Program-made: the position numbers and the translations under genes
Source: Candidimonas nitroreducens
GTDB lineage: Bacteria; Pseudomonadota; Gammaproteobacteria; Burkholderiales; Burkholderiaceae_B
Direction: 5' to 3'
Assembly: GCF_002209565.1 (NCBI RefSeq)
Contig: NZ_NJIH01000011.1
Location: forward strand, 62,001 to 126,000
DNA: 64,000 nt
Shown here: positions 44,164 through 61,959 of the stretch, in pieces
Layout: every line of letters begins with the position of its first letter
Position numbering within the stretch: the stretch's first letter is position 1
The notes under the pieces: generated by a model
What the model was told of the DNA's origin: nothing
The model's input: only the letters and a program-made list of their open reading frames with translations
The model's database searches: none

Positions 44164-44165
44164 GG

Positions 44166-45029
44166 TTATACCGGTTCCAGTTCGCGGGCCGAGCACCAGC
44201 GCAATTCACGGCGATATTTTTGATCGTCGAATGGCGTGGCACGGTGCAATGTGCAGCTATCGTCCCAAACCAGAAGGTCGTGGGGCTGCCACTTGTGTTC
44301 GTAGCGGAATTGCGGCTGGGTTGCGAATTCGGTGAGCTCTTCCAATAAGGCCCGGCCTTCGCTTTCATCCATGTCGACGATGTGCGATGCATGCGCCCCG
44401 ATATATAGGCACTTGCGGCCCGAGCCGGCATGCAGCCGCACCAGCGGGTGCTCGCTGGGGGGCAGCAGGTTCCGTGTTTCTGCATTGAAGTTGGTATAGC
44501 CGACTTTGGCGCGCGAAGCATAAACACTGTGCACGACACGCAAAGGCTCCAGCTCTGCTTGCCTGGATTTCGGCAGGGCGTCCCAGGCGGCGCGTGTGTC
44601 GGCGAATTCGGTGTTGGGGGGATTCTCTTCCGGAAGGACGATGGCATTGAGCGCGGTCACGCGAGCCGGTGGTTGGCGCATGGACATATCCGTGTGCCAG
44701 AACAGATTGGCCTGCAGATACAAGCGCCGCTCATGCTCTTGCATCATGATTTTGCCGTTTTCGTCGATATTGGAAACGTCATAGAAATAAGGGTTCTTCA
44801 TGCGGCTGTTATTCAACTGGCGAGCAAGCGCATTGGGCGGCCCGAACCAGCGTATGAATGCTTCCTGGGCCGCTTCGTCCAGGGGCTGGTTTCGGAAAAA
44901 GATCACGCCGTGTCGAGCCAGCGCCGCTTCGATTTCCGTATAGCTTTCCTGATTCAGCGGTTCTTGCAGATCTATGCCTGAAACCTCGGCACCAAATCCC
45001 GACGGCATGGGTTTGACAGTGATGGCCAT
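44166..45029 (-). CDS. TauD/TfdA-family Fe(II)/2-oxoglutarate dioxygenase
   Basis: A 287-residue dioxygenase with the facial triad H112/D114 (FWHTDMSM) and H262 (CTLHRATPF), and the 2-oxoglutarate Arg in RRELRW. The start IDLQEPL and GVIFFRNQPL segments match TauD/TfdA. AAAGGAG lies seven bases before the ATG. It is followed directly by the FAH gene and then by Bug. A 207-bp gap separates it from the MmgE/PrpD gene upstream, so it may have its own promoter. Confidence 0.92.
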   Translation of the reverse strand: MAITVKPMPSGFGAEVSGIDLQEPLNQESYTEIEAALARHGVIFFRNQPLDEAAQEAFIRWFGPPNALARQLNNSRMKNPYFYDVSNIDENGKIMMQEHERRLYLQANLFWHTDMSMRQPPARVTALNAIVLPEENPPNTEFADTRAAWDALPKSRQAELEPLRVVHSVYASRAKVGYTNFNAETRNLLPPSEHPLVRLHAGSGRKCLYIGAHASHIVDMDESEGRALLEELTEFATQPQFRYEHKWQPHDLLVWDDSCTLHRATPFDDQKYRRELRWCSARELEPV

Positions 45030-45236
45030 GGCCCGCTCCTTTTCTCTGGTATTGGAGAACTGCTAGTGATGAGTGTGGGTTCGATGGAAGTCTACGCAGC
45101 CGTGCACTGTTACGCCAATCGTACGTAGTTATGCCTGTCCATAATGCATTTTGATCGGCTCGATATATATGGCCGCATGGCCGCCGCGTTTGCGATATGC
45201 GGATTGTTTGCACACCGGTTCGACCGATGGCGGGTT

Positions 45237-46565
45237 TCAGGGGCGCAGCACAGAGACCAGCGCTTCGATGGTTGGCGCCTTGTCTAGTTCACGCACGCAG
45301 TGCTTCAGCTGTTCGTATCGCGCCGCGCCGTCCTGCCACGGCCATTCATCCGCCATGCCCGACAATATGGCGTCGGCTTCCTGCCAGTCGAAGGCGAACC
45401 GGGAAAGCTCGGTGATTTCATCCTCGTACGCCGTGCCGCTTTGTAGGCTGACGCGTACCCGGGCACCCCAGTCGGGCAGCCCCTGCAGGCCAGCGACCGA
45501 AACGCGCTCGGCGAGGGTATGGATTTCTCCTGCGCCATACAGAGTGCCGAAGTCTTGGATACGCAGTGTGCGGTTGCGCAAGCCGACGGCCATCATGAAC
45601 GGGCAGCTCATGATCGCGCCGGTGGGTGTCTCGAAAGGCCCGTGGCGATCGATGCCTGGATATGCGGCATTGCGCTCCGCAAGCCAGACTTCGACTCGAT
45701 CGACGTCTGCTGCGCCGAAGGCATGCTTGCGTTGCAGGCCCAGCAGCAGATATAGCGGGGCCTGGTTGATCAAACAGCCTGGCAGAGGCTTGAAAATCAC
45801 CTGAGGCGTGCGCCATGCCCATGTCGGCTCGTTCGCGGCTTCCGAGCCTGCAAACGTGCGGAAAAAACCGCTGCTTCCTTCGAATGAATGCCTGGCGGCA
45901 GGATACCCCCGCTTGGCAAGTTCGGCGCAGATCACTCCGGCGCGGGCTGCATTGGCAACCTGTATACGCCATTCCGGCGTACCCTCGAGCCAGCATTGCA
46001 TTGTGCCGGCGCTGTGCTGGGTGGCCAAGCCCAGGGCGTTCGCGGTTTGCGCGGCGTCGAGGTCTAGCATGCGCGCTGCCGCCGCCGCGGATGCGAACAC
46101 GCCGAAAACGGAAGTCGCACGAAAACGGCGCCCCACGACGGCGTCCGCGTGGCCGGCGGCCACCATGGCCAGAACTTCGTAGCCGGCTGCCATGGCCGTC
46201 AATACTTGTTTCCCGGTAGCCGACTGTTGTTGCGCAAGGGCGAGCACCACCGGAATGATGATGCAGCCAGGGTGCGCATAGGCTTCCGAGTAAGTGTCGT
46301 TTTGGCCGCGAGAGCACATGCGGAATGCGTTGATGTATGCAGCGTCGGCGGCGCTGCGCTCGAGATTGGAAACCAGAGTGCGGGCGGGGCCAGGAGCGGC
46401 ATTGGAGCACAGCACGGCGGTTTCCAATTCATCGCGGGCGCCCGCACTGGCGGCCATCACCATTCCGTAGAGCATACAGGTCTTGAGCTTGGCTAGCACC
46501 TGTTCCGGAATGTCTTCGAACTGCAGGCCCGCGGCGCGGGCGGCTATGGTGTCGGAGTAGCTCAT
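45237..46565 (-). CDS. MmgE/PrpD-family protein (2-methylcitrate dehydratase / cis-aconitate decarboxylase-like)
   Basis: A 442-residue MmgE/PrpD family protein. The helical part shows DIPEQVLAKLKTCMLYGMVM, FRMCSRGQNDTYSEAYAHPG and QVLTAMAAGYEVLAMVAAGH; the second domain has FKPLPGCLINQAPLYLLLGL. Family members dehydrate 2-methylcitrate or related hydroxytricarboxylates, or decarboxylate cis-aconitate; substrate here unknown. The typical His/Asp in the first domain (HPG) are kept in YAHPGCI. ATG at 46565 is preferred (AAGGG seven bases upstream) over a TTG two codons earlier. It follows a Bug gene by 40 bases in a minus-strand operon led by that Bug gene. Confidence 0.9.
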   Translation of the reverse strand: MSYSDTIAARAAGLQFEDIPEQVLAKLKTCMLYGMVMAASAGARDELETAVLCSNAAPGPARTLVSNLERSAADAAYINAFRMCSRGQNDTYSEAYAHPGCIIIPVVLALAQQQSATGKQVLTAMAAGYEVLAMVAAGHADAVVGRRFRATSVFGVFASAAAAARMLDLDAAQTANALGLATQHSAGTMQCWLEGTPEWRIQVANAARAGVICAELAKRGYPAARHSFEGSSGFFRTFAGSEAANEPTWAWRTPQVIFKPLPGCLINQAPLYLLLGLQRKHAFGAADVDRVEVWLAERNAAYPGIDRHGPFETPTGAIMSCPFMMAVGLRNRTLRIQDFGTLYGAGEIHTLAERVSVAGLQGLPDWGARVRVSLQSGTAYEDEITELSRFAFDWQEADAILSGMADEWPWQDGAARYEQLKHCVRELDKAPTIEALVSVLRP

Positions 46566-46605
46566 GGGCAATCCCTTGTCGTGTCTACGCGGGTTCTTCG
46601 GCTGA

Positions 46606-47607
46606 TCACGGGATCACGATGCCGCGTGTTTTCACCAGCGCTCCGATGCGCTCGTGTTCACTCTTGAGCAGGTCGTTGAAAGCCTGTGGCGCTCCCCCCG
46701 AAAGGGTGATGCCGAATTCCCGGGCACGGCTTTGAACCACCTGGCTCGTCAGCGACTTGTTCAGCTCTGTATTGAGTTTGGACACCGTGGTGTCGGGCGT
46801 TCCGGCGGGTACGAGCACGCCATACCAGGTGCCAGAACGAAACCCTGGCAGACCGGCCTGATCGGAGGTGGGCAGCTCCTTCCAATCCGCAAGCGGTGTA
46901 TCGCTGCCTATCATCAACGCCTTCAGATATCCTTCTTTGACCATGGTGCGTGTGGCCGGAGCGTCGAACACTGCGTCGACATGGCCGCCAGCCAGAGCGG
47001 GCACGAATGCGCTGGAGCCGCCCATCGGAACGTGTACGATCTTGATGCCCGTCATGTCGGCAAATTGCTCGGCGGCGATATGGGGGCTGCTTCCTATGCC
47101 GGAAGAGGCGAAAGTCACGCCTTCCGGCCTGGCTTTGGCCCAGGCAAGAAAAGATTTCATGTCGTTGGCGGGGATCGATGAGCGTATGAAAAGTACGGTG
47201 GGCTGCCAGCCGACATAGATGACGGGCTTGAACCGGCTTTCGTCGAATGCAGGGCCGCCTTTCTTGTACTGCAGCGTTGTATAGGGTAGGCCGGTGAACA
47301 GCAGTGTGCGCCCGTCGGTGGCGGTGGACTGCGCGACAGAGCGGGTTGCAAGCAGAGTGCCCGCGCCCACTTTGTTCAGAGGCGTAACCGATTCTCCGGT
47401 CTGCTGCGAGAAAGCAAGGCTTACCGCGCGCGCCATCAAGTCCAGTGAGCCGCCCGCGGCGATGGGAATGATCATTTCATAGTGTCTTTGCGCATGGGCG
47501 TGGCGCATGGGCAGCCACGTTAGCGCGAGAGCACTGACGATGCCGACACACAGGCGCGCCAGGGTTGACGTCGCGGTTCGGTGTCCCGCGGATAGCAGTG
47601 AAAGCAT
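46606..47607 (-). CDS. Bug-family (TctC-like) periplasmic solute-binding protein, divergent variant
   Basis: A 333-residue Bug-family protein with a signal peptide (residues 1-39 or so, ending RHAHAQ) and the relaxed opening RHYEMIIPIAAGGSLDLMAR. It diverges from the other six Bug proteins at several core places (LNKVGAGTLLATRSVAQ instead of VENxxGAxGxxG), so its ligand may be unusual. GGAG seven bases before the ATG at 47607 fixes the start; the frame continues 85 codons upstream without meaning. First gene of the minus-strand operon, divergent from a LysR gene across 257 bases. Confidence 0.85.
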   Translation of the reverse strand: MLSLLSAGHRTATSTLARLCVGIVSALALTWLPMRHAHAQRHYEMIIPIAAGGSLDLMARAVSLAFSQQTGESVTPLNKVGAGTLLATRSVAQSTATDGRTLLFTGLPYTTLQYKKGGPAFDESRFKPVIYVGWQPTVLFIRSSIPANDMKSFLAWAKARPEGVTFASSGIGSSPHIAAEQFADMTGIKIVHVPMGGSSAFVPALAGGHVDAVFDAPATRTMVKEGYLKALMIGSDTPLADWKELPTSDQAGLPGFRSGTWYGVLVPAGTPDTTVSKLNTELNKSLTSQVVQSRAREFGITLSGGAPQAFNDLLKSEHERIGALVKTRGIVIP

Positions 47608-47864
47608 GACAGTCTCCGTTGTCGATTTGTGGCATATATTCGACGCCTCGCCTTGAGGCGGCGCTGCGCGTATTGTCGGAGGATAGCGTCGAGTATTCCA
47701 ATCAGAATCATCTATGGCTTGGCATAAATCCTGGATATATTTCGCGCGCCATTCTGGTACCCCAGTCTGGCTGTTGTCTGGCGGCCGTGAGCGATGTATG
47801 TTTTGTTCTGATATTTTGGTGTCGGCCAGCCTATGGCTGCTGTTGCCGCAAAGAGGAGACATCT

Positions 47865-48770
47865 GTGCGCAATATCAATCTTGCGAACCTGGAGACCGCA
47901 TTCTGGATAGCCCGCCTGGGCAGCTTCACCGCAGCGGCCGAGCGTCTGTACACCACACAACCTGCGATCTCGGCGCGCATGCGCGAATTGGAAGCCGCCT
48001 TGGGCGTGAAGCTGTTCGTACGAGTGGGCCGGGGCGTGGAGCTGACCATGGAAGGCCGCAAATTCCTGGAAGATGCGGAACCGATCTTCCAGCAGTTCGA
48101 GGCCTTGACCGGGTCTGTCAATTCGGCCTATGCCTCGGGCGGCACGGTGCGCATTGGTGCGGGAAACATTTCCATGAGCTGGTTTCCCAACATGATTCGC
48201 GAAATGCAGCGGATCGTTCCCGATCTTACCTATGACGTGGAAATCGATTTGGCCGGCAAAGTGTTGCAAAAGCTCGAGGTGCGCAAATTGGATATAGCCA
48301 TCGTTGCGGGCCCCGTGCACGGAGACAAGCTGTCGTCGGCTCCCCTTGGGTACGACAGGATGTTGTGGGTGGCTTCCGCGGAATTCTTGACAGAGAACTG
48401 GGCCGGCAATTTGCTGGAATTTCTACGCACTGCGCCTATCTGGTGTGTACAGCGCGAGTCCTTCTACTGGACGGAGGCCATGCGCATCATCATGGAAGGG
48501 GGCGGTAATCCGCGACACTTCAACGGTATCAGCAACATGGCCGCCGCCCATCAGATCGTGTTGGGCGGTGGTGGCGTAGGCTGCCTGTCGTCGATGCTGA
48601 TCCGGCAAGATCTGGAGGCGGGCACCTTGCAACTGATACCGGACTTGCGTCAAGGAGGATGGGTCGAGTTTTCTGTCGCCTGTGTCGCCGAGTCCAGGAA
48701 GTCGAAGATCATCTCGCAGATCATGGATATGGCCCAGGCGTCGTCCACCCTCAAGCGTCAGCGGGATTGA
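47865..48770 (+). CDS. LysR-family transcriptional regulator
   Basis: A 301-residue LysR regulator: helix-turn-helix in ETAFWIARLGSFTAAAERLY and TTQPAISARMRELEAAL, then the effector domain with VRIGAGNISMSWFPNMIREM and LGGGGVGCLSSMLIRQDL. GTG start with GAGGAG six bases upstream. It is divergent from the Bug-MmgE/PrpD operon and is followed after 181 bases by an FMN hydroxyacid dehydrogenase, so it is positioned to control both sides. ATATATGG-type sequences recur in the flanking gaps (45160s, 47640s, 48800s) and could be part of its sites. Confidence 0.9.
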   Translation: MRNINLANLETAFWIARLGSFTAAAERLYTTQPAISARMRELEAALGVKLFVRVGRGVELTMEGRKFLEDAEPIFQQFEALTGSVNSAYASGGTVRIGAGNISMSWFPNMIREMQRIVPDLTYDVEIDLAGKVLQKLEVRKLDIAIVAGPVHGDKLSSAPLGYDRMLWVASAEFLTENWAGNLLEFLRTAPIWCVQRESFYWTEAMRIIMEGGGNPRHFNGISNMAAAHQIVLGGGGVGCLSSMLIRQDLEAGTLQLIPDLRQGGWVEFSVACVAESRKSKIISQIMDMAQASSTLKRQRD

Positions 48771-50253: not shown

Positions 50254-51192
50254 TTAGTCCAATCCGTGCTCGTCGCCTTCCAGTTTCAAGCCAGGACGTG
50301 GCCATGGAACCTCCACGAGTCGCCCGGCGTACGACTGCGTGACATAGGCGGTTTTGTGGTCGAGGCCGCCAAAGGCGATATTAGTGCAATGGGTGTCACC
50401 GGGCACGGGGACGAACTCGCCTGCACCTCCGTTTGGTGAGCAGACAGTGATGCCACCGGAATCTAATGTCCCGACGCAGATGTTGCCGTTCGCCTCCACC
50501 GCCAATGAATCGAAACGGCGATAGGCTGCTACGGCGGAGATGAGTTTGCCGCCGTGAGGTGATGTGGTGGATGCGACAGCCGGAGATTTCAGCTCGCCTG
50601 GGCCGGCCAGTTCCCACGCCCAGAGCTTGCCACTTTCGGTTTCCGCGACATACAGCGTGCTGCCATCGGGGGAAAGACCCACGCCGTTTGGTTTAGTAAT
50701 GGGAAAGATGAGTTCCTTTATCATTGATCCATCGGCCTTTGCATAGCATACGCATCCTCGATCCCAGTCCCGATGTCTGACTTTACCTGGATCGCTAAAA
50801 TAGAAGCCGCCATGAGCATCGAAGACGATGTCGTTGGGGCCCCGAATTTTCTGGTTCCCCACCTTGTCGTATACGACCTCTGCCTTACCGGTTTGGATAT
50901 CCACACGTTCGACTCGGCCGGTGACGTAATCATCGGGAGTACCCGCAGTGACAAACTTACCGTCCGCCCGTGGTACAAACTTGAAGCCACCGTTGTTGAC
51001 GACATAGCAGTATCCGTCTGGGCCCATGGCGGCACCATTGGGGCCTCCGCCCAGTTTGGCGATGACTGTCTGCTTACCTTTGGCGTCGATGTGAGTTAGG
51101 GTTTGGCGTCGGATTTCGACGACGATGAATGTACCGTCTTCGAGCGCGATAGGGCCCTCGGGAAACTGCAGGCCTTCCGTGATTATGCGCAT
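50254..51192 (-). CDS. SMP-30/gluconolactonase family protein
   Basis: A 312-residue beta-propeller lactonase-like protein. Typical blades are EGLQFPEGPIALEDGTFIVV (with metal-site Glu), GGGPNGAAMGPDGYCYVVNN, GPNDIVFDAHGGFYFSDPG and KPNGVGLSPDGSTLYVAETE, giving the family metal ligands Glu, Asn, Asn/Asp. It hydrolyses lactones or related esters. AGGAG lies before the ATG. It is the last gene of a minus-strand operon (HpcH, Bug, AtuA, small AtuA-like), so it may open a lactone formed in that pathway. Contains unusually many Cys for a secreted-type propeller (for example CVCYAKADG); no signal peptide, so cytoplasmic. Confidence 0.88.
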   Translation of the reverse strand: MRIITEGLQFPEGPIALEDGTFIVVEIRRQTLTHIDAKGKQTVIAKLGGGPNGAAMGPDGYCYVVNNGGFKFVPRADGKFVTAGTPDDYVTGRVERVDIQTGKAEVVYDKVGNQKIRGPNDIVFDAHGGFYFSDPGKVRHRDWDRGCVCYAKADGSMIKELIFPITKPNGVGLSPDGSTLYVAETESGKLWAWELAGPGELKSPAVASTTSPHGGKLISAVAAYRRFDSLAVEANGNICVGTLDSGGITVCSPNGGAGEFVPVPGDTHCTNIAFGGLDHKTAYVTQSYAGRLVEVPWPRPGLKLEGDEHGLD

Positions 51193-51213
51193 TCTGTGCT
51201 CCTGGCTTGCGGC

Positions 51214-51528
51214 TTAGTTTGGTTGGGGAAGTTCGATTGTCATCATCAGGCTGCTGAGCGATTTGCCGTGAGCGTCCTGCGCGAGGGATCGGGTAACGCC
51301 GCCCGCGAGCGCGCCTTCAAGGACGAAGTTGAGGGCCTGTAGATTGGGCAGCTCGTAGCGGATTACTTTACCAGTGAGTAGGTGCGCGAAGGCCTTTTCG
51401 ACGCGCTCCACGGTGAGCTCCTTCTGAAGGAGCTTCCAACCAGAGTCGTCGAAGGCGATGACGGAGATATTCGAAGTGTCGCCCTTGTCGCCGGCGCGGC
51501 CATGGGCAATATCGTAGACGCGAATCAT
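51214..51528 (-). CDS. Small AtuA-associated domain protein (AtuA-like C-terminal domain)
   Basis: A 104-residue protein starting MIRVYDIAHGRAGDKGDTSN with VIRYELPNLQALNFVLEGAL and an ending GVTRSLAQDAHGKSLSSLMM. This is the ferredoxin-fold domain that in many AtuA (DUF1446) proteins is fused to the C-terminus; here it is a separate gene whose ATG overlaps the AtuA TAA stop by one base (TAATG). The coupling implies a complex of the two. Biochemical function unknown. GAGAGGA precedes the ATG. SMP-30 begins 22 bases downstream. Confidence 0.85.
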   Translation of the reverse strand: MIRVYDIAHGRAGDKGDTSNISVIAFDDSGWKLLQKELTVERVEKAFAHLLTGKVIRYELPNLQALNFVLEGALAGGVTRSLAQDAHGKSLSSLMMTIELPQPN

Positions 51529-52883
51529 TAGCCTATCCTCTCTACCTGAACTTGGGGGTCTACCAGCTTGCGCGGAATCAAAACCGACTGCACGGCCAGT
51601 ATTTTTCGAACGACAGGATCAGAGCCGCCACCACCGCCGCATGGGCCATTAACGTGCAGCGCGCGAACCTCGAAGCCAACCGCGGCTGCGGCCTTGGGGT
51701 TGTCGCAGCGCATAGCAAGACGCAGACGCACTTCATAAGGCTCGGGACGGACATCGGGCCTGCCGTGCAGGCTGGACATGCCAATAAGATCGACGCGAAC
51801 TTCAGAGTAAGTGTGGCCCGTATCCTTGAGACGCTGTTGCACGATGTCTGCAGCCCATTTGGCCTTGGCGACAGCGTTGATGCCGGCATAGGAGATTTCC
51901 CCTATGCCGATATAGCCGTCGTCATAGCCCACGGTGACTTTGTAGGTATCGGTATGTGGCTTAGCTCGGGCTCCACGGAAAGTGACGTGATTCTTACCCG
52001 ACTGCGTCAGGTGCAGGCCTGTGATATCGAGAACACAATCGGGGGTAATGTAGTGGGCAGGGTCATGCATTTCGTAAAGCAGCTGCTCTTTGCACGTTGC
52101 CAAGTCTACGCGGCCGCCGGCGTCGTCGAGCTTGCTGATGGTCATTTCACCATCTTCGAGAATGTCCACGTAGGGAAAGCCGAGGCCAGCTAGATTTTCA
52201 ACCTCTTTCTTTCCTGGATCCCCGAAGCAGCCACCGCTGACTTGTGCGCAACACTCCAACAGGTGGCCCATGACGGTACCGGCGCCGATACGTTCTATGT
52301 TTTCGTATGTCCATCCATAGCGGTGCATGGCAGGAGCCAGGAACAGCGAAGGGTCGGCCACCCGGCCCGTGATGACCATCTGCGCATTCGTTTCGAGCGC
52401 CTTGACAATAATGTCGGCGCCAAGGTAAGCGTTCGCCGACGCCATTTTCGGCAGCAGCGTTTCTAGCGGCTCGCCGGACTCCATCAGTGGTAGGCCGGGA
52501 TGTTGCCGCAGTAGATCCGAGACATCGTCGCCAGTGACGATGGCGCAAGAAAAATCGCCCAGCCCTAGATCTTGCGCCACGCGCCGCACTTCACGCGCGG
52601 CGGCAGGTGGGTTCGCAGCGCCCATGTTGGTGACCACTCGTACACGGTTGCGAACCACTGGTGGCAGTACTTGAGCCATACGTTCGCTTAGGCGAGGTGT
52701 ATAGCCCAGGTCTGGATTCTTGAGGCGAGTAAGATTCTCGCGAGCGACAGTACGCTCGGCGAGGCATTCGAATACCAGATAGTCGAGCTCACCCTTTTCG
52801 GCAAGGTCTACGGCCGGTTGAAAGCGGTCGTCAGCGAAACTGGCGCCGGCGCCAACGCGCAATGTATCAGCAGATTTAGGCAT
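51528..52883 (-). CDS. AtuA-family (DUF1446) protein, large part of a split AtuA pair
   Basis: A 451-residue protein of the acyclic terpene utilisation AtuA family: LRVGAGASFADDRFQPAVDL, YLVFECLAERTVAREN, TNMGAANPPAAAREVRRVAQ, TGRVADPSLFLAPAMH and HLLECCAQVSGGCFGDPG are family hallmarks, and it ends after GPCGGGGGSDPVVRKILAV. In Pseudomonas, atuA is needed for citronellol/geraniol use, but the reaction is unknown; homologues occur widely beside Bug and CoA-transferase genes. The usual fused C-terminal domain is encoded by the next gene. ATG at 52883 preferred over an upstream TTG without ribosome site. Confidence 0.88.
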   Translation of the reverse strand: MPKSADTLRVGAGASFADDRFQPAVDLAEKGELDYLVFECLAERTVARENLTRLKNPDLGYTPRLSERMAQVLPPVVRNRVRVVTNMGAANPPAAAREVRRVAQDLGLGDFSCAIVTGDDVSDLLRQHPGLPLMESGEPLETLLPKMASANAYLGADIIVKALETNAQMVITGRVADPSLFLAPAMHRYGWTYENIERIGAGTVMGHLLECCAQVSGGCFGDPGKKEVENLAGLGFPYVDILEDGEMTISKLDDAGGRVDLATCKEQLLYEMHDPAHYITPDCVLDITGLHLTQSGKNHVTFRGARAKPHTDTYKVTVGYDDGYIGIGEISYAGINAVAKAKWAADIVQQRLKDTGHTYSEVRVDLIGMSSLHGRPDVRPEPYEVRLRLAMRCDNPKAAAAVGFEVRALHVNGPCGGGGGSDPVVRKILAVQSVLIPRKLVDPQVQVERIG

Positions 52884-52963
52884 AGAGAGCCCCGTTAAGA
52901 CCTGGGCTTCCCGCAAAGAGCAAGGCTCGCCACGTTTCGGGAAAACCTAGGCATTTGTAATTG

Positions 52964-53980
52964 TCATTCCAACTTGAGATTGATGGCTTTGATGATGTCA
53001 CCTTTGGCCTTCATGTCCTGTTTAACGAACTGGGTAAATTCAGCAACCGAACTATTGAAAGCCCGGGAGCCCCCTTGTTCTAATTTGGCGATGAACTTGG
53101 GGTCGTTCGCGACTTGGCGGATGTCGTGGTTGAGTTTCTGGACGATGGCATCTGGAGTATGGGCTGGCGCAAGTATGCCGATCCATGAAGAACAGATCTG
53201 ATCGGTATAGCCGAATTCGCCTACTGTAGGCAGCTTGGGGAAGAGCTTGAGCCGTTTCTGGCCTAGAGTAGCCAGCGCGCGAACTTTGCCACTGCTCAGT
53301 TGAGAAGCTACGGAAGGAATTGCGACAAAGCCGATGGGAATGTGATCTCCCATGACGTCGAGCAACACCTGTGAATCACCCTTATAAGGTATGTGCCTGA
53401 TGTCGAAGCCAGCGCGACGCTTGAAGGCTTCCATACCCAACATGGTGATGCTGCCCATGCCCGATGTGCCATAAGTGTATTTGCCGGGGTTGGCCTTGGT
53501 GACTTTCAGGAATTCCTGAAAGTTATTGGCCGGAAAATCGGAAGCCACCACGATAACCGCATCGTTGGTAGCGATGGCGGTGATTGGTATGAAGTCATTC
53601 AGCGTGTCGTAGGGGACTTTCTCCAACTGCGGCCGAATTGTTAGGGCGCCGGCCGTGTCGACCAGCAGCGTGTAGCCGTCGGCGGGATCCTTGGCTACTC
53701 GCCCGGCAGCCACGCTGCCCGATGCTCCCCCTACGTTCTCCACAATCACCGATTCGCCCCACAACTTGGTCAGACCTTCGGCCAGCATACGGGCTTGCAG
53801 ATCTGTCGCACCACCGGCGGCGAAGCCGACGATCAGGTGAACCGGATGCGAAGGGAATGATTTCGCGTTGGCTGCATCGGAGTTGCTGGCTTGGCAGGGG
53901 GAGGCGAAGAGCGCTATAGCGCCCGCCAACATACCCGTCGATGCTGCTGTGAGCCACCACCATCTTTTTATTCCATTCAT
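52964..53980 (-). CDS. Bug-family (TctC-like) periplasmic solute-binding protein
   Basis: A 338-residue Bug protein with a long N-region: MNGIKRWWWLTAASTGMLAG, signal cleavage near CQASN, then HPVHLIVGFAAGGATDLQAR, VENVGGASGSVAAGRV and DPADGYTLLVD. AAGGAGA six bases before the ATG decides the start over a frame 32 codons longer. It lies between HpcH (upstream, 419-bp gap) and AtuA (80 bases downstream) in the minus-strand run. Probably takes up the acid or lactone degraded by the AtuA/SMP-30 genes. Confidence 0.92.
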   Translation of the reverse strand: MNGIKRWWWLTAASTGMLAGAIALFASPCQASNSDAANAKSFPSHPVHLIVGFAAGGATDLQARMLAEGLTKLWGESVIVENVGGASGSVAAGRVAKDPADGYTLLVDTAGALTIRPQLEKVPYDTLNDFIPITAIATNDAVIVVASDFPANNFQEFLKVTKANPGKYTYGTSGMGSITMLGMEAFKRRAGFDIRHIPYKGDSQVLLDVMGDHIPIGFVAIPSVASQLSSGKVRALATLGQKRLKLFPKLPTVGEFGYTDQICSSWIGILAPAHTPDAIVQKLNHDIRQVANDPKFIAKLEQGGSRAFNSSVAEFTQFVKQDMKAKGDIIKAINLKLE

Positions 53981-54399
53981 ATTGTCTCCTTGACTGGTTG
54001 GCAGGCACGAAATTGTGCCAGGTGCAGGCAATCTTGGGCGAAGCATATGCCACGACGCGCTGCCTAGGATGAACATTCTGGAGCGGGGTGTCCATAACGT
54101 CCAATCATCTTTGTTTTCTAGTCTATAAATGGCAGTGATGGGCGCGTAGAGTGAAAGCGTAGGAGCCGCTCTCGGGGGCTAAGCGGGCAGCGATGAGGAA
54201 GCGCCACGCAAATGCCAGCCGATTTTTAACCCAGCTAAGATCGACGATAGCGCCGCTGGCCGTACCGCGTGGACGCGGTGTGCTACGCAGCGCGTCCAAA
54301 GAATAGTCGCAGTAGGCACCCCCAAAGCCTGATGCCGTAATCGCGGGGAAGGGAGTTGATTCCTGGGCTAGTAGCGATAGGCGCTTCTTTTGGGAGAGG
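53981..54399. other. Gene-poor stretch between HpcH/HpaI and Bug; possible degraded sequence
   Basis: About 420 bases with no credible complete gene. It must contain the Bug promoter on the minus strand. It includes a 94-codon minus-strand frame with no start codon (listed separately), which looks protein-like and may be a remnant or an intergenic repeat. Confidence 0.45.
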
Positions 54400-54407
54400 T
54401 CACACGT
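54123..54407 (-). pseudogene. Start-less 94-codon open frame, possible gene or repeat remnant
   Basis: An open frame of 94 codons between two stops with no ATG or GTG. Its translation has natural-looking composition (for example ITASGFGGAYCDYSLDAL and LSWVKNRLAFAWRFLIAARL) and ends TLRAHHCHL. I cannot name a family. On the other strand the same bases give a 37-residue Arg-rich frame from 54193. It may be the tail of a lost gene or a dispersed repeat. Confidence 0.22.
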
Positions 54408-55194
54408 TTAACGCCGACCGTAACAATTTTGTGCGTGCGGTAGCACCGGAAACCATGTACTGCAGGTCGCTGCCCGCGGAAATATATAAAGCGCCCATTT
54501 TCACGAATTGCGTCAGCAGTTCTGGATGCCCCGATAACCCGCCCACGCCGACATGCTTGCCGTGTTTACGTGCTACGGCGGTTACATGTGCATAGATCTC
54601 TTTCACTTTAGGGTGGTCGAATTGGCCATCGATTCCCAGTTGGGCGCATAAGTCGTTGGTTCCAATGAATAGAATGTCTACACCCTCGACTGCGGCGATT
54701 TCCTCGGCATTGTCCACTGCGTCCGGCCCTTCGAGCATTGTAACGACAGTAGTCTTGGCGTTCAGCTCGCGCCGGGCCTCAGCTAACGGATAATTTTGGA
54801 ACTTGAGCTGTGGTAAGCCTATCGACACAGATCGGTCGCCCAATGGTGGAAATTTCGCAGCCGCAACGACTCGTTCCGCTTCATTCCGGTTACTGACATG
54901 CGGAGCAATGATGCCCATCGCGCCTCCATCTAGCACACGCGATACATATTCGGGTGCATAGCTGGGCACACGTACAAACGGTGTGATGCCCACAGCCAGC
55001 GCGGCCATGCAGATTTGGCTGGTCTGGTGCATGCTATGCATGCAGTGCTCAAGATCGATATATAGCGTGTCGTAGCCGCAGGATTTGGCGATCTGTGCTA
55101 TCTCGATGCTTTCGACCAGTCGAACCTGAAAGGAGACCGCGGGCTTTCCCGCCGCTAGATTTGAGGTCACATTGTTCTGAATGATGTCGTTCAC
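54400..55194 (-). CDS. HpcH/HpaI-family aldolase / citrate lyase-like
   Basis: A 264-residue class II (metal-dependent) aldolase of the HpcH/HpaI family. It has GYDTLYIDLEHCMHSM, GITPFVRVPSYAPEYVSRVL (with substrate-binding Arg), GGAMGIIAPHVSNRNEAERV, the metal Glu in TMLEGPDAVDNAEEIAAV and FIGTNDLCAQLG with metal Asp. Members cleave 2-keto-3-deoxy or 4-hydroxy-2-keto acids to pyruvate and an aldehyde. I take the GTG (VNDIIQNNV) at 55194, which follows GAGG, as start; the frame is open to an ATG at 55329, but the added 45 residues have no homology and lie against a truncated gene. The pathway with AtuA and SMP-30 is inferred from position. Confidence 0.86.
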   Translation of the reverse strand: MNDIIQNNVTSNLAAGKPAVSFQVRLVESIEIAQIAKSCGYDTLYIDLEHCMHSMHQTSQICMAALAVGITPFVRVPSYAPEYVSRVLDGGAMGIIAPHVSNRNEAERVVAAAKFPPLGDRSVSIGLPQLKFQNYPLAEARRELNAKTTVVTMLEGPDAVDNAEEIAAVEGVDILFIGTNDLCAQLGIDGQFDHPKVKEIYAHVTAVARKHGKHVGVGGLSGHPELLTQFVKMGALYISAGSDLQYMVSGATARTKLLRSALNV

Positions 55195-55334
55195 CTTACG
55201 CCTCGTAGAGTAGTTGAAACGGATTGCCAGCGGGCAGAGTGCCCGCGTGGAGAGTATGGATTGTGTTTTGGTGCGAGGCAGGATGTCGTCCTGCGGCCGG
55301 AGATGTTCGTCATTAAGAACCTTGGCCATATTAC

Positions 55335-55490
55335 TTAGTGCATGGCGGGAAACAGGCCACGGAAGGCCAGTACATGATGGCTCGCGAAAGCTTTTTTGAC
55401 TTGCACTGTAGTGTCCGCATCGCGTGTGTCGCGCAAGTCAATGCCGGTGATTTCGGCTCCGGTGTGCGAGATCAGTGGCGTGTTTGTCAT
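55335..55490 (-). pseudogene. Truncated TauD/TfdA-like dioxygenase (N-terminal fragment)
   Basis: Fifty-one codons reading MTNTPLISHTGAEITGIDLR then DTRDADTTVQVKKAFASHHV and LAFRGLFPAMH before a TAA. This matches the first about 45 residues of TauD/TfdA proteins (LGAEIxGIDL...HHVLxFRG); the iron-binding HxD and distal His are missing and no continuation was found in other frames downstream. The sequence then runs into the HpcH frame. It appears to be the remains of a dioxygenase gene after a deletion, though expression of a short peptide cannot be excluded. Confidence 0.65.
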
Positions 55491-55599: not shown

Positions 55600-56382
55600 A
55601 TGACACAAGAAGGTGTGAAATCCGCCCAGCGAGTGTTCAGGATCTTGGAGTTCTTTGGGCAAGAGCAACGCGACTTGTCAATGACGGAAATTGCGCATCA
55701 CTGTGGTTTTCCTCAGTCGAGCACCTCGGCGCTGATGCGCACAATGACGGAACTGGGTTATCTGCATTTTGATCGCGGTAGCCGCACGTATCGACCGACG
55801 CTGCGCCTACCGCTGCTGGTAAGTTGGGTCAACACCAAACTGTTTAATGGTGACAAGATCCTGCAACTTATGCAGGATCTCAGCGAAGCCACGGGCGAAA
55901 CGATTCTATTGGCAACGGAGAATGGCCGCTGCTGCCGCTACATTCATGTGATTGAAGCAACTGGCCCGTTGCGGCTGCATGCCATGGCCAGCCAAACCAG
56001 GCCGTATGCGCGTACCGCATGCGGTTTGGTTCTGTTAAGTCAGTGGAACCAGCGGAGATTGGCGGGGTTCATTCAGCGCACCAATGGCGAAGAGCCTGAT
56101 CCCGCTTTGCGCGTGGATCTGGCAGCCCTGTTGAAGCGGCTCGACGGTATTCGCAAAGACGGCTACGTCAAGTCTGTTGGGGGCCTGACTAATGTTGGCG
56201 GCGCTGTTGCGATGATGTTGCCGCGGGTCGAATCCGAGCCCCCAATGGTGATTGGCATTGCCGGATTCCAGACTCGAGTAGAGGCGCACGCCTCTGCATG
56301 GGTTGAGAAAATGCGCAGTGTCGTGGCACGGTATTTTGGTGAATACGAATATAGCAGCCTTATGCCGAAAATTGATATATAA
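55600..56382 (+). CDS. IclR-family transcriptional regulator
   Basis: A 260-residue IclR regulator: helix-turn-helix with LSMTEIAHHCGFPQSSTSAL and LMRTMTELGYL; effector domain with ETILLATENGRCCRYIHVIE, RPYARTACGLVLLSQW and DGYVKSVGGLTNVGGAVAMM. It is divergent from the TauD-remnant/HpcH operon, with 109 bases between, and precedes a D-2-hydroxyacid dehydrogenase by 102 bases; either could be its target. Base composition is visibly less GC-rich than the core genes. No clear Shine-Dalgarno before the ATG. Confidence 0.88.
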   Translation: MTQEGVKSAQRVFRILEFFGQEQRDLSMTEIAHHCGFPQSSTSALMRTMTELGYLHFDRGSRTYRPTLRLPLLVSWVNTKLFNGDKILQLMQDLSEATGETILLATENGRCCRYIHVIEATGPLRLHAMASQTRPYARTACGLVLLSQWNQRRLAGFIQRTNGEEPDPALRVDLAALLKRLDGIRKDGYVKSVGGLTNVGGAVAMMLPRVESEPPMVIGIAGFQTRVEAHASAWVEKMRSVVARYFGEYEYSSLMPKIDI

Positions 56383-56484: not shown

Positions 56485-57420
56485 GTGATATACGTACTCG
56501 ACGCTTTCGAACCCTCCGGGCTTCAATACTTGGCAGACCAAAATCAAAGCTTCGTGCCTTTTGGTGATCCGCGCGGTATTAACTGGCATCAGGATGCTGT
56601 TGGCATCATGATCCGAGGGAGCCAGTTGAGCGCAGATGATTTTGCACGTGCTCGAAAGCTTAAAGTAGTATCCAAACAGGGGGTAGGCGTAGATAACATT
56701 GCACTGAGCGCTGCACGCGAACATGGTGTAATTGTGTGCAACACACCGGGTATCAATAGCGCCGCGGTGGCCGAATTGGCATTCACTCTGGCGATGGCAG
56801 TAGCGCGTCGTGTCAGCGAGTTCGACCGTATGATTCGTAGCGGGTCAAAGATAGTTCGCCCTCGATATCTTGGTCGTGCAATGCATGGTAAGACGATCGG
56901 CTTCATTGGCATGGGCAACATCGGCACGCAGGCGGCGCGGCTATTTCGCGGGGCGTTCGATTGTAGGATACTGGCCTACGATCCGTATGCCCCGATGGGG
57001 CATTGGGGCGATATACCACATGTGCGTATTGCCGATCTGGAGGAATTGTGGCCGCAGGTGGATGTGCTGTCACTACATGTGCCTCTGACCGATACGACGC
57101 GCAATATTGTCGATCGCGCCGCCATAGCTCGGATGAAACCCAGCGCGATTATCATTAACGTTTCACGCGGTGGGCTGATTGACGAGCTTGCACTAGCGGA
57201 TGCTTTGCGTGACGGCAAACTATTCGGCGCTGGCTTGGATGCCTTCGAGGAAGGCGAGCCGCCCAGCCGGAGCAACCCACTGCTTGCATTCCCAAACGTG
57301 CTGGCCACGCCTCATGCTGGTGCGGGCACCATCGAAACGCAGGCCGACAGTTCTCTAGCAACCGCCCGCCAGTTGTTGCACGTACTTGCCGGCAACGAGC
57401 CATTCCACCGTGTGGTATAG
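56485..57420 (+). CDS. D-2-hydroxyacid dehydrogenase (NAD-binding, phosphoglycerate dehydrogenase-like)
   Basis: A 311-residue D-isomer 2-hydroxyacid dehydrogenase. The NAD motif is GMGNIG (142-147, after KTIGFI), the active-site Arg is R228 (NVSRGGLID), the Glu lies in LDAFEEGEPP (251-260) and the His is H277 (ATPHAGAG). It reduces 2-oxoacids or oxidises D-2-hydroxyacids; the lack of an ACT or ASB domain argues against serine biosynthesis. The start is GTG (IYVLDAFEPSG). The gene is the most AT-rich stretch counted (26 of 60 GC in one line), suggesting acquired DNA. Probably co-functional with HpcH aldolase products. Confidence 0.88.
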   Translation: MIYVLDAFEPSGLQYLADQNQSFVPFGDPRGINWHQDAVGIMIRGSQLSADDFARARKLKVVSKQGVGVDNIALSAAREHGVIVCNTPGINSAAVAELAFTLAMAVARRVSEFDRMIRSGSKIVRPRYLGRAMHGKTIGFIGMGNIGTQAARLFRGAFDCRILAYDPYAPMGHWGDIPHVRIADLEELWPQVDVLSLHVPLTDTTRNIVDRAAIARMKPSAIIINVSRGGLIDELALADALRDGKLFGAGLDAFEEGEPPSRSNPLLAFPNVLATPHAGAGTIETQADSSLATARQLLHVLAGNEPFHRVV

Positions 57421-58706: not shown

Positions 58707-59579
58707 TCAAGCGTGGGCCACAGCCTGCGCCGAATACGCTTCTAGCGGCTTGCCTTGCAGCATGATGCGGTAGAGGTAGCGCAACTCGGTCGGATCGTAG
58801 TCCGCATTGGCTTGATGTAACACACTGCGGTTGTCCCAGATAACAAGATCGCCAGGCTGCCATACGTGCCGGTATTCGAACTTCGGTTGAGTGGCATGGC
58901 GGAACAGGCGCGCAATCAGTGCATATCCTTCTTCGTCGGGCATGCCTTCAATACCTTCCATGCGCCCGGTATTCAAGTACAAGGCCGGTCGGCCGCTTTC
59001 AGCGTGGCGGATGACTAGCGGCTGAGACGTGCGCGGCATGGCGTCACGCTCTTTATCACTGAGCTTGAACATCTTGCGTGTGCTGTGTGTACTCTCGTAA
59101 ACGTGCAGGGAGCGCAGGCTTGAAATCTGCGCCTTAGTGGCCTCGTCCAGGTCGTCGTAAGCGGCCCGTGCGTCGCAAAACTGAGTATCGCCGCCTCGGC
59201 TGGGCAAATTCACAGCATGCAATATAGTTGCTTTGGGCGGTGCAGAGAAGTTGGAATGATCTGTATGGAATTCTTCGCCGCGCACGTGCAGCTTACCATC
59301 GACTACCGGCAAGTCGCGTGACGAAATTGTGCCTACTTCAGGATGATCCGGCAGGGCGAATTTTTTCAGTTGCTGAGCGAGGATATCGCCGAACATGCGT
59401 GCAGCAGCTGAAAACTGTCCGGGTTCCAGCTTTTGATCGCGTACGACGAGTACAGCATGTTCGATCCAGGCTTCGTAGATACGCCGGCGATCCGATACGG
59501 TAATCGGCCCAGACAGATCCACGCCACGAACTTCGGCGCCAAGCACAGATGATGATATGGGTGTAATGGTCAAGGTCAT
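58707..59579 (-). CDS. TauD/TfdA-family Fe(II)/2-oxoglutarate dioxygenase
   Basis: A 290-residue dioxygenase with the iron ligands H105/D107 (EFHTDHSNF) and H255 (RSVLHQANADY); RYLYRI carries the 2-oxoglutarate Arg. The start LGAEVRGVDLSG and HAVLVVRDQKLEPGQ are standard TauD/TfdA. ATG at 59579 is preferred (a GGA at fair spacing) over one 11 codons upstream without ribosome site. It is a third full TauD gene of the window and the last gene before the core prkA operon; convergent with LysR. Substrate unknown. Confidence 0.9.
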   Translation of the reverse strand: MTLTITPISSSVLGAEVRGVDLSGPITVSDRRRIYEAWIEHAVLVVRDQKLEPGQFSAAARMFGDILAQQLKKFALPDHPEVGTISSRDLPVVDGKLHVRGEEFHTDHSNFSAPPKATILHAVNLPSRGGDTQFCDARAAYDDLDEATKAQISSLRSLHVYESTHSTRKMFKLSDKERDAMPRTSQPLVIRHAESGRPALYLNTGRMEGIEGMPDEEGYALIARLFRHATQPKFEYRHVWQPGDLVIWDNRSVLHQANADYDPTELRYLYRIMLQGKPLEAYSAQAVAHA

Positions 59580-59983
59580 GAGAAATCCAATCTGAGTGAA
59601 GACGGCTTTCATTTTGACGATGACATGCAGAGCACGCCAATCACGATTTTGGCCTCAATCATAATCTGGACTGATGCTGAGTGATTCGGGATGATACCGA
59701 ATACGCTTTACTCGCGGTCGTCTATTCCGACCCTAATTTATCGGTCATGGCCATAGGTGCGAATATCAAGTGATATGGTAAGCACACTGCAACAATGCTT
59801 CTGTGTCGATATGCGAACCGGTACCCGGGCGGCGAAAGAGTGCGAATTTCTCTGAACTTCGAGCGCGAACGGGTGTCCAACCCCATAGCAATGGACATTT
59901 CGAGGTTGGGTTTCCACTGACTCAGGTTCATAGATGCACAAGCAGGGTCAGCGGGCGACTCAACTCCATGCTTGGAGAAGGCC
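59580..59983. other. Gene-free stretch between TauD and prkA
   Basis: About 400 bases, AT-richer than the prkA operon. It holds the TauD promoter (minus) and prkA promoter (plus). Frames of 60-90 codons on both strands show no recognisable motif. It may be the right-hand edge of the catabolic region; no tRNA, integrase or clear attachment repeat was seen. Confidence 0.45.
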
Positions 59984-61936
59984 ATGACCGAATACAACAA
60001 AGATACAGAACGACAACGTTCTGAATTTGTCGAGTCGCTGACGGATTATTCGCGCAAACAGCAAGCCCAGCAATGGGCGGGCAGCTTCAACGATTACCTG
60101 CGTGACATCGTCGCCGGCAATCCGGGGCGCGCCGCCCGATCCAGCCATCAATATATTTGGGACATGATGTGCTGGCGCGGCATAGAGGCGCCCAAGCAAA
60201 GCGATGCCTGCAATCGCTACAAATTGTTCGAAGATGATTTGTTTGGCATCGACCAGGCCCTGGAGCGGGTTGCCAATTACTTCAAGGCGGCCAGCGAAGG
60301 CTCCGAGGTGGGGCGGCGCCTGCTGCTCTTGCTGGGGCCACCGTCGGGCGGCAAATCAAGCCTGGTGACGCTGCTCAAGCGTGGCCTCGAGGCCTACAGC
60401 CGCGTCGATGACGGTGCGCTGTACGCCATTCAGGAAAGCCCGATCCAGGAATCGCCCCTGCTGCTGATTCCGCACGGCAAGCGGGCCGAATTCAAGGATT
60501 CCTACGGCGTCGAGATCAGTGGCGAATTGTCGCCCTACACGCGCGCGCTGGTGGATGACAAATACGGCGGCGATTTCGCCCGCGTGCCCGTGCACCGCAT
60601 TTTCATCGACGAGGCCGGCCGCAAGGCGGTAGGCACTTACGCCCCGCACGACCCGACCACGGCCGATATCGCCGACCTGGTGGGCTCGGTCGACCTGTCC
60701 AAAGTGGCCGAGTACGGCGACGAGGGCGACCCGCGCGCCTGGTCGTGGTCGGGGGCGGTCTATGCCGGCAACCGCGGCCTGCTGGAAATGATCGAGATTC
60801 TCAAGGTCAAGCGCGAGTTCCTGTACCTGCTCTTGACCCTGACCCAGGAGCAGGTGGTCAAGGTATCGCGCTTCCCGCTTATCTACATCGATGAAACGAT
60901 CGTCGCGCATACCAATATGGCCGAATTCCGCCGCTTCCTGCAGGAAAAGGAAAATGAAGCCCTGCTCGACCGCATGGTTATCGTACAGGTGCCCTACACC
61001 TTGTGCTACACCGACGAGGCGCGCATCTATCACAAGCTGACCTCGGCCACGCCGTCGTTCCGGCAAGTGCACCTCGATCCGCACGCGCTGGCGGTGGCCG
61101 CCGTGTTTGCCATACTTACGCGCCTGAAGGCTTCGGAACGCGCCGACCTCGACCTCAGCAAGAAGCTGCGCATACACGCGCATGAAGAGGTGGAAGGGAT
61201 TTCGGATACCGAAGCCGAGCACATCATGCGCGAGCAGCCCGACGAGGGCATGGACGGGGTATCGCCGCGCTTTGTCGTCAATGCGCTGGCCAGCGCCATC
61301 AGCCAGTCGGAGAGCAAGAGCCTGACCGCAATGGAAGTCATGCTGGCGCTGAAGGATGCGATCGAATCCGATGCGCGCATGGATGCGAAGATGAAGAAGC
61401 AGTGGATTGACTTCCTGGTCACCACGCGCAAGGAGTTCTACAACCGCTGGGTCAAGGAAGACGTGCACAAGGCGCTGTTCGTGTCCTTCCTGGACGAGGC
61501 GCAAGAGCTGCTGGACAAATATTTGGACGAAGTCGAGGCGGTACTCGAGAGCCGCAAGGTGGACGACCCCATCACCGGCGAAGAGCGCGATGCCGACGAA
61601 CGTTTCCTGCGCAATGTGGAAACCAAGATCGGCATATCCGATTCCGGCAAGACCTCGTTCCGCCAGGAGATCGTGCGCAAGGCCCTGGGTGCCTACAAGC
61701 GCGGCGTCAAATTCACGCTTGCCGAGCACGCGCGTTTGCGCGAAGCGATAGAGCAGTACCTGTTCCAGGAGCGGCGCGACGTGCTGCGTCTGGTCACTTC
61801 GAGCGCGCGCGCCGACGCCGAGACCATGGAAAAGATCTCTGCGGTCGAACAGCGCCTGGTCAACGACTACGGCTACGATGCGCATAGTGCGCACGAAGCG
61901 CTCAACTATGTGACCACACTGCTGGCGCAGGAATAG
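59984..61936 (+). CDS. prkA: PrkA family serine protein kinase / AAA+ protein (YeaG)
   Basis: A 650-residue PrkA/YeaG protein: an AAA-like N-terminal domain with Walker A GPPSGGKSS (118-126), ESPIQESPLLLIPHGKR, IFIDEAGRKAVGTYAPHDPT and YIDETIVAHTNMAEFRRFL, followed by the C-terminal PrkA kinase-like region. In E. coli YeaG works with YeaH in starvation and stress adaptation. The ATG at 59984 follows GGAGAAGG; a TTG four codons earlier is not needed. First gene of the conserved prkA-yeaH-spoVR operon. Confidence 0.96.
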   Translation: MTEYNKDTERQRSEFVESLTDYSRKQQAQQWAGSFNDYLRDIVAGNPGRAARSSHQYIWDMMCWRGIEAPKQSDACNRYKLFEDDLFGIDQALERVANYFKAASEGSEVGRRLLLLLGPPSGGKSSLVTLLKRGLEAYSRVDDGALYAIQESPIQESPLLLIPHGKRAEFKDSYGVEISGELSPYTRALVDDKYGGDFARVPVHRIFIDEAGRKAVGTYAPHDPTTADIADLVGSVDLSKVAEYGDEGDPRAWSWSGAVYAGNRGLLEMIEILKVKREFLYLLLTLTQEQVVKVSRFPLIYIDETIVAHTNMAEFRRFLQEKENEALLDRMVIVQVPYTLCYTDEARIYHKLTSATPSFRQVHLDPHALAVAAVFAILTRLKASERADLDLSKKLRIHAHEEVEGISDTEAEHIMREQPDEGMDGVSPRFVVNALASAISQSESKSLTAMEVMLALKDAIESDARMDAKMKKQWIDFLVTTRKEFYNRWVKEDVHKALFVSFLDEAQELLDKYLDEVEAVLESRKVDDPITGEERDADERFLRNVETKIGISDSGKTSFRQEIVRKALGAYKRGVKFTLAEHARLREAIEQYLFQERRDVLRLVTSSARADAETMEKISAVEQRLVNDYGYDAHSAHEALNYVTTLLAQE

Positions 61937-61959
61937 CCGCGGTATGCGAGGCCATCATC

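What the first reader, a model, noticed from the sequence alone, without database searches (positions are those of the whole stretch)
50254..55194. Split AtuA pair in an operon with HpcH aldolase, Bug and SMP-30 lactonase
AtuA proteins usually carry the small C-terminal domain in the same chain; here it is a separate gene overlapping by one base (TAATG). The reaction of AtuA/DUF1446 is unknown. Its coupling here to a lactonase, a 2-keto acid aldolase and a binding protein points to a carboxylate or lactone route, not terpene use.
Basis: partly seen in the sequence, partly recalled or inferred. Interest (0 to 1): 0.55.

Follow-up and report, generated by a model that had tools for sequence, protein, structure and literature searches.

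The report
Two-part AtuA-type lyase operon
Two adjacent genes encode what looks like the large and small halves of a carbon-bond-cutting enzyme related to citramalate lyase, set in a gene cluster that probably breaks down an imported lactone or carboxylic acid; the two-gene layout is common, but the family link makes the enzyme's uncertain reaction testable.

Summary
In detail: AtuA (PF07287) and a separate AtuA_ferredoxin protein (PF23544) overlap by one base (TAATG), in a minus-strand run with HpcH aldolase, TctC/Bug and SMP-30 genes. The split is common: 100 of 123 AtuA loci in the own family, 22 of 41 in a phylum sample; only an even class-wide sample leans to fused length, 11 of 14. On a tree rooted with two-gene CmlA relatives, split looks ancestral. 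Predicted folds of both proteins match best the two chains of solved citramalate lyase CmlA/CmlB, 9evf (Z 32.3 and 11.2), with shared conserved residues. So the pair is most likely a two-subunit lyase that cuts a beta-hydroxy carboxylate, probably releasing acetate. A related operon holds the same set plus 2-hydroxyacid dehydrogenase and TauD; both also lie in the window. SMP-30 linkage sits almost wholly in one AtuA clade. Complex formation, reaction and substrate are unproven.

The parts
51528..52916 (-). AtuA-family large subunit (PF07287), 462 aa from TTG; likely start ATG at 52880
   Evidence: Pfam 461 bits; AF2 pLDDT 93.4; best PDB match 9evf_A, citramalate lyase, Z 32.3, 419 residues aligned, Foldseek E 1.2e-26
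51214..51528 (-). Small subunit, AtuA ferredoxin-like protein (PF23544), 104 aa; ATG overlaps the AtuA stop by one base (TAATG)
   Evidence: Pfam 121.5 bits; AF2 pLDDT 90.8; best PDB match 9evf_B, citramalate lyase subunit B, Z 11.2, 98 residues aligned
50254..51192 (-). SMP-30/gluconolactonase-like lactonase (PF08450), 312 aa
   Evidence: Pfam 138.9 bits; 66% identical to the one in the L101 operon
52964..54076 (-). TctC/Bug-type solute-binding protein (PF03401); true start probably internal
   Evidence: Pfam 245.9 bits; a TctC homologue lies within the held stretch of 103 of 123 AtuA loci of the own family
54400..55329 (-). HpcH/HpaI aldolase (PF03328); true start may be GTG at 55194
   Evidence: Pfam 112 bits; best NCBIfam models are 2-dehydro-3-deoxyglucarate aldolase PRK10558 (131.7), GarL (127.3) and HpaI (126.4 bits), all far below cut-off; 43% identical to the L101 copy
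56485..57420 (+).
   Evidence: PF02826 181.4 bits; NCBIfam PGDH 257.5, glyoxylate reductase 196.9, GhrB 169.6 bits, all below cut-off; homologue in the L101 operon, 43%
58707..59612 (-).
   Evidence: PF02668 222.6 bits; 63% identical to the TauD gene directly upstream of AtuA in L101
55600..56382 (+). IclR-type regulator, divergent from the HpcH gene
   Evidence: PF09339 and PF01614; role as regulator of this operon inferred from position

Best explanation
Genes 51528-52916 and 51214-51528 encode the large and small subunits of one enzyme, a heteromeric carbon-carbon lyase of the superfamily that also holds citramalate lyase CmlA/CmlB. The separate small protein is a true subunit in what looks like the ancestral two-gene layout, not a piece broken off a fused AtuA. 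The enzyme most likely cleaves a beta-hydroxy (often tertiary-alcohol) carboxylate into a ketone or 2-oxo acid and a small acid, probably acetate, as in citramalate to pyruvate plus acetate. In the operon the TctC/Bug protein collects the substrate; the SMP-30 enzyme opens a lactone to the hydroxy acid; the AtuA pair cleaves it; the HpcH aldolase and the D-2-hydroxyacid dehydrogenase process 2-oxo/2-hydroxy acid intermediates; TauD oxidises upstream. Shown by computation: homology of the large subunits, predicted folds, shared conserved residues, gene-set conservation. Inferred: complex formation, lyase reaction, acetate as product, order of steps, substrate.
For: Fold matches to both chains of one solved enzyme: 9evf_A Z 32.3 over 419 of 462 residues, next row 8.5; 9evf_B Z 11.2 over 98 of 104, next 8.1; 9evf_A is the only Foldseek match below E 0.001. 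Profile comparison AtuA/CmlA E 1.5e-16, prob 98.7. Aligned conserved residues: 15 shared in the large subunits (among them R185, D188, E221, C222, Y281, E282, K326 of the window) and 5 in the small. Fusions of the same domain at the C-terminus (18) and the N-terminus (4) in the own family (one N-fused and three C-fused checked by Pfam). Two-gene outgroup and 3 fused/split changes on the tree. Co-variation of AtuA and small-protein distances r 0.93, against 0.73 for AtuA and the neighbouring TctC, 56 loci. Context: CitMHS transporter, SMP-30, L101 gene run TauD-AtuA-small-2HAD-HpcH-SGL-TctC. Literature: AtuA tentatively an acetate lyase (PMC4847356, passages); a DUF1446 gene of unknown function beside methylaspartate ammonia-lyase in bacteria whose citramalate-cleaving enzyme could not be found (PMC4682846, passages).
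Against: Identity to CmlA is 17% over the fold match; the single-sequence PDB search gave only E 0.79 for the large chain and nothing for the small. The small-subunit profile match is weak (prob 43; 30 in the global run). The count of shared conserved residues comes from a profile alignment that itself favours matching conserved columns, so its shuffle control (0 of 2000) is too lenient; only 5 CmlA-type sequences were used. Only monomers were modelled; no complex was tested. A review gives the terpene acetate-lyase step to LiuE, not AtuA (PMC4097962, passages). The 9evf title names ADP and pyruvate; I could not read how ADP takes part, so the chemistry may differ from a plain lyase. 10 of the 20 rows of the window's AtuA clade show no SMP-30 gene in the held stretch.
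Confidence: 0.6

Rival explanations
1. A different reaction on the same scaffold: the pair is a non-lyase relative (for example an ATP-dependent ligase, a dehydratase or an isomerase of hydroxy acids) that kept the CmlAB fold and nucleotide site.
For: 9evf is described as an ADP-pyruvate complex; the family is diverse (tree) with several genomic contexts.
Against: Conserved polar residues are shared with CmlAB in both subunits, and the one assignment in print that I saw for AtuA is also an acetate lyase.
Confidence: 0.25
2. A classical AtuA acting on acyclic terpenoid CoA esters, whose C-terminal domain has been separated.
For: Same Pfam families as terpene AtuA by name.
Against: Fused-C AtuA form a group apart, with one split row at an open fork. 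No carboxyltransferase, enoyl-CoA hydratase or acyl-CoA dehydrogenase among the 17 window proteins scanned between 43228 and 63156. That the fused group is the terpene AtuA rests on length (615 aa in Thauera linaloolentis) and neighbours, not on a named terpene AtuA placed in the tree.
Confidence: 0.06
3. The small protein is an independent regulator or chaperone co-transcribed with AtuA, not a catalytic subunit.
For: It is a small ferredoxin-like fold; an ACT-like domain is among the lower fold matches.
Against: It is fused to AtuA at either end in other species, lies beside or within 163 of 164 strong AtuA loci counted, the one miss being at a contig end, has invariant R, D, H and K residues and matches CmlB best.
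Confidence: 0.09

Closest known systems
Citramalate lyase CmlA/CmlB (PDB 9erq, 9evf; PF07287 + DUF4387/PF14330)
   Same: Two chains of 456 and 105 residues; both window proteins match the corresponding chain by fold; shared conserved residues. This genome also has two CmlA/DUF4387 gene pairs of its own.
   Different: 17% identity in the large chain; the small subunit belongs to PF23544, not PF14330; the window pair falls outside the CmlA branch; different operon.
[quoted passage not shown]
   Same: Same family name; proposed product acetate (PMC4847356, passages).
   Different: 615 residues in Thauera linaloolentis, the length of a fused chain; fused AtuA form a group apart on the tree and more often have carboxyltransferase neighbours.
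Split AtuA/AtuA_ferredoxin pairs beside LysR, TctC or CitMHS genes, in many bacteria and a haloarchaeon
   Same: Same two-gene layout and tight spacing.
   Different: Few have the lactonase, aldolase and 2-hydroxyacid dehydrogenase together: only L101 among the 220 loci besides the window's own.

Membership tests
Pfam PF07287 (AtuA) | Score above gathering cut-off over the whole domain | tested here: met
   461 bits against 22.8, profile positions 1-436 of 437
Pfam PF23544 (AtuA_ferredoxin) | Score above gathering cut-off over the whole domain | tested here: met
   121.5 bits against 27, positions 1-112 of 113
Citramalate lyase CmlAB | Large subunit of the CmlA fold | tested here: met
   9evf_A Z 32.3, 419 aligned, rmsd 3.4
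Citramalate lyase CmlAB | Close sequence kinship to CmlA | tested here: not met
   phmmer E 0.79; CmlA-type proteins were the outgroup. The own C24 proteins do meet it, E 5e-113 and 3e-116
Citramalate lyase CmlAB | Small subunit of family DUF4387 (PF14330) | tested here: not met
   Pfam gives PF23544 only; the fold nevertheless matches 9evf_B, Z 11.2
Citramalate lyase CmlAB | Cleaves citramalate to pyruvate and acetate | not testable with these tools
   needs an assay
Terpene-pathway AtuA | Single fused chain of about 600 residues | tested here: not met
   separate genes
Terpene-pathway AtuA | Same clade as a named terpene AtuA | tested here: inconclusive
   window AtuA lies outside the fused group, but no named terpene AtuA was placed in the tree
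Terpene-pathway AtuA | Genes for geranyl-CoA carboxylase, hydratase and acyl-CoA dehydrogenase alongside | tested here: not met
   none among 17 window proteins scanned between 43228 and 63156
Two-subunit complex | Physical association of the two proteins | not testable with these tools
   indirect support only: fusions, co-variation, CmlAB precedent

The most novel reading that the evidence does not exclude
The pair is an acetate-releasing lyase for lactone-derived branched hydroxy-dicarboxylates, as far as I could see an undescribed catabolic step. One concrete route: SMP-30 opens 2-hydroxyparaconate (a fungal itaconate lactone) to itatartarate, which is citramalate with a hydroxymethyl in place of the methyl; the AtuA pair cleaves it, possibly with ATP, to acetate (or acetyl phosphate) and hydroxypyruvate; the 2-hydroxyacid dehydrogenase, whose best models include phosphoglycerate dehydrogenase and glyoxylate/hydroxypyruvate reductases, turns that into glycerate. 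The lactone-to-itatartarate step is known for a different, 127-residue Pseudomonas protein (PMC9875883, abstract and passages). One search that required two of four terms (itatartarate, lactonase, 2-hydroxyparaconate, hydroxypyruvate) gave 22 papers; I saw the listing of 10, and no title or abstract start there names such a pathway.
Probability: 0.08. Interest if true: 0.72.

Novelty: new member of a known kind. Interest (0 to 1): 0.45.

Why it matters
PF07287/PF23544 pairs are widespread near carboxylate transporters, yet their reaction is unsettled and their name points to terpenes. That both chains of the split form correspond to the two subunits of a solved citramalate lyase turns this into a direct assay (hydroxy-carboxylate panel, 2-oxo acid and acetate readout), explains why the small protein can be separate or fused at either end, and offers one chemistry, release of free acetate from a beta-hydroxy acid, for both the carboxylate and the terpene branches.

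Tried and rejected
Split as gene decay or sequencing error: rejected, the split form is the majority in the own family, tightly spaced and found across phyla. Terpene AtuA with a detached domain: judged unlikely on tree and context. Defence role: no PADLOC hit for either protein. Promoter/terminator scan: fewer sites than in shuffles, no use. Literature on CmlAB: searches for 'DUF1446' (7 of 7 rows seen), 'citramalate lyase' or 'AtuA' (25 of 11,010, mostly off topic), 'citramalate lyase' (8 of 8), 'DUF4387' and AtuA names (1 of 1), citramalate terms from 2022 (5 of 5) and '9EVF', '9ERQ', 'CmlAB', 'cmlA cmlB' (10 of 22) showed no paper on it in the listings; the library holds open-licence papers only. 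L274 as a natural fusion for modelling: rejected, its longer frame is an upstream extension at a contig end. A first residue-sharing script parsed nothing and was redone. The gene caller missed some genes, so the transporter counts are lower bounds; SMP-30 counts rest on direct phmmer hits.

Rows dropped before counts: PF07287 matches of 183 bits and less, and those of 102 bits and less (CmlA-type or fragments; one search's list is cut by the tool), were left out of the split/fused count; the own genome was left out of the phylum count. Only 17 of 41 phylum loci entered the tree. The 80 loci are the best 80 of at least 591, so biased to the window's subfamily; one search printed 76 split and 4 undecided, of which 2 (L268, L286) prove split on reading coordinates and 2 (L217, L274) stop at contig ends. 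Two loci occur in both sets (L075/L251 and L180/L217). One search leaves out L217 and four loci without an assigned centre (L262, L268, L278, L286); its 184 split loci still hold the L251 duplicate and the undecided L274, and 7 rows of other classes are not in the comparison. The tree has 219 of 220 loci.
Full report
What is there. The minus strand of 50254-55329 carries, in transcription order, an HpcH/HpaI aldolase, a TctC/Bug binding protein, AtuA (PF07287), a separate AtuA_ferredoxin protein (PF23544) and an SMP-30-type lactonase. AtuA and the small gene share one base (TAATG). An IclR regulator (55600-56382) and a D-2-hydroxyacid dehydrogenase (56485-57420) lie on the other strand, and a TauD dioxygenase at 58707-59612 on the minus strand.

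Is the split special? Not in this lineage. The own genome has three strong AtuA genes, each with its own separate small gene just downstream. Over 121 genomes of the family there are 123 strong AtuA loci in 67 genomes: 98 split with the small gene downstream, 2 split with it upstream, 18 fused C-terminally, 4 fused N-terminally and 1 cut by a contig end. In a 299-genome phylum sample, own genome excluded, 22 of 41 loci are split and 19 fused. A class sample of 229 genomes, drawn evenly, speaks the other way: of 14 strong loci outside the own genome, 11 have fused-length frames (judged by length alone). Among the 80 nearest relatives in named genomes, including Pseudomonas, Bacillota, Bacteroidota and a haloarchaeon, 78 of 80 are split and 2 stop at a contig end. 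In 167 split pairs the assigned start lies between -14 and +30 nt of the AtuA stop in 156; a 1-base overlap is seen in 7 and a 4-base overlap in 45.

History. A tree of 140 AtuA domains rooted with two CmlA-type proteins of the same genome, each followed by a separate small gene (DUF4387), needs 3 fused/split changes. The C-terminal fusions fall together, with one split row at an open fork; the N-terminal fusions sit inside a small group whose split members also have the small gene first. Pfam confirms an N-terminal fusion (L192: small domain 7-105, AtuA 167-612) and C-terminal ones. The simplest reading is two genes first, fused later at either end. That the same domain can be joined at either end argues that the two are parts of one complex. 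Distances in the two proteins also run in step (r 0.93) more closely than AtuA with the neighbouring TctC (r 0.73; 56 loci).

What the proteins resemble. AlphaFold2 gave confident monomers: AtuA pLDDT 93.4 from 68 sequences, small protein 90.8 from 56. Against solved structures the AtuA model has one outstanding match, 9evf_A, 'Citramalate lyase - ADP - pyruvate complex': Z 32.3, 419 residues, rmsd 3.4, 17% identity, next row Z 8.5; Foldseek E 1.2e-26, the only match below 0.001. The small model's best match is the partner chain 9evf_B: Z 11.2, 98 of 104 residues, 10% identity, next row 8.1. The PDB names these chains CmlA ('AtuA family protein') and CmlB ('DUF4387'). By sequence the link is firm for the large subunit as a profile (E 1.5e-16), not as a single sequence (E 0.79), and weak for the small (prob 43; no phmmer hit). 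Fifteen strongly conserved residues coincide in the large subunits and five in the small, though the alignment itself favours such coincidences.

Reaction. Citramalate lyase gives pyruvate and acetate (PMC4682846, passages, on the classical enzyme; the CmlAB entries are known to me by their PDB names only). The same paper notes a DUF1446 gene of unknown function beside methylaspartate ammonia-lyase and could not find what cleaves citramalate in E. coli O157:H7. In the terpene pathway 3-hydroxy-3-isohexenylglutaryl-CoA loses acetate, a step listed tentatively for AtuA in PMC4847356 (passages) but for LiuE in PMC4097962 (passages). Both are the same chemistry, a beta-hydroxy acid cut to a ketone plus free acetate. 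I infer that the window pair does this too on a carboxylate. Whether ATP is used is open; 9evf contains ADP.

Context. Split AtuA loci carry a CitMHS citrate transporter in 44 of 184 cases, fused-C loci in 0 of 24; a carboxyltransferase is near 8 of 24 fused-C and 6 of 184 split loci (lower bounds). SMP-30 genes are held with AtuA in 10 of 20 rows of the window's clade (SH-aLRT 99; one locus present twice), all on the same strand and within about 2.1 kb downstream; outside it in 1 of 199 rows, there on the other strand 6.4 kb away; the fewest changes on the tree are 4. Two different kinds of SMP-30 protein are involved (49-66% against about 25% identity to the window's). In the own genome 2 of the 3 AtuA pairs are followed by one of only 12 SGL matches in 5.6 Mb; the third is not. 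This recurrence is the best evidence that lactone opening and the AtuA reaction belong together.

Verdict. A two-subunit member of a known, widespread family, on computed evidence; the split is ordinary here, the carboxylate/lactone reading is supported, the reaction can now be guessed and tested. Complex formation, substrate and acetate release remain inference.

Noticed in passing
window 55335-55490 (-): A 51-aa frame between the IclR and HpcH genes looks like a truncated TauD N-terminus (Pfam E 0.0016, 18.8 bits, below cut-off; 33% over 45 aa to the window TauD); no match to the L101 TauD.
   Followed up: partly
   Followed up: yes
own genome C24: 558723-562169 and 712918-716382 (L004-L007): Two CmlA/DUF4387 pairs, strong relatives of the solved citramalate lyase (E 5e-113 and 3e-116).
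   Followed up: partly
window 43228-48770: A neighbouring second set: FAA hydrolase, TauD, MmgE/PrpD, TctC/Bug and a LysR gene on the other strand.
   Followed up: no
window 59972-63156 (+): PrkA-type serine protein kinase gene followed by a DUF444 gene.
   Followed up: no
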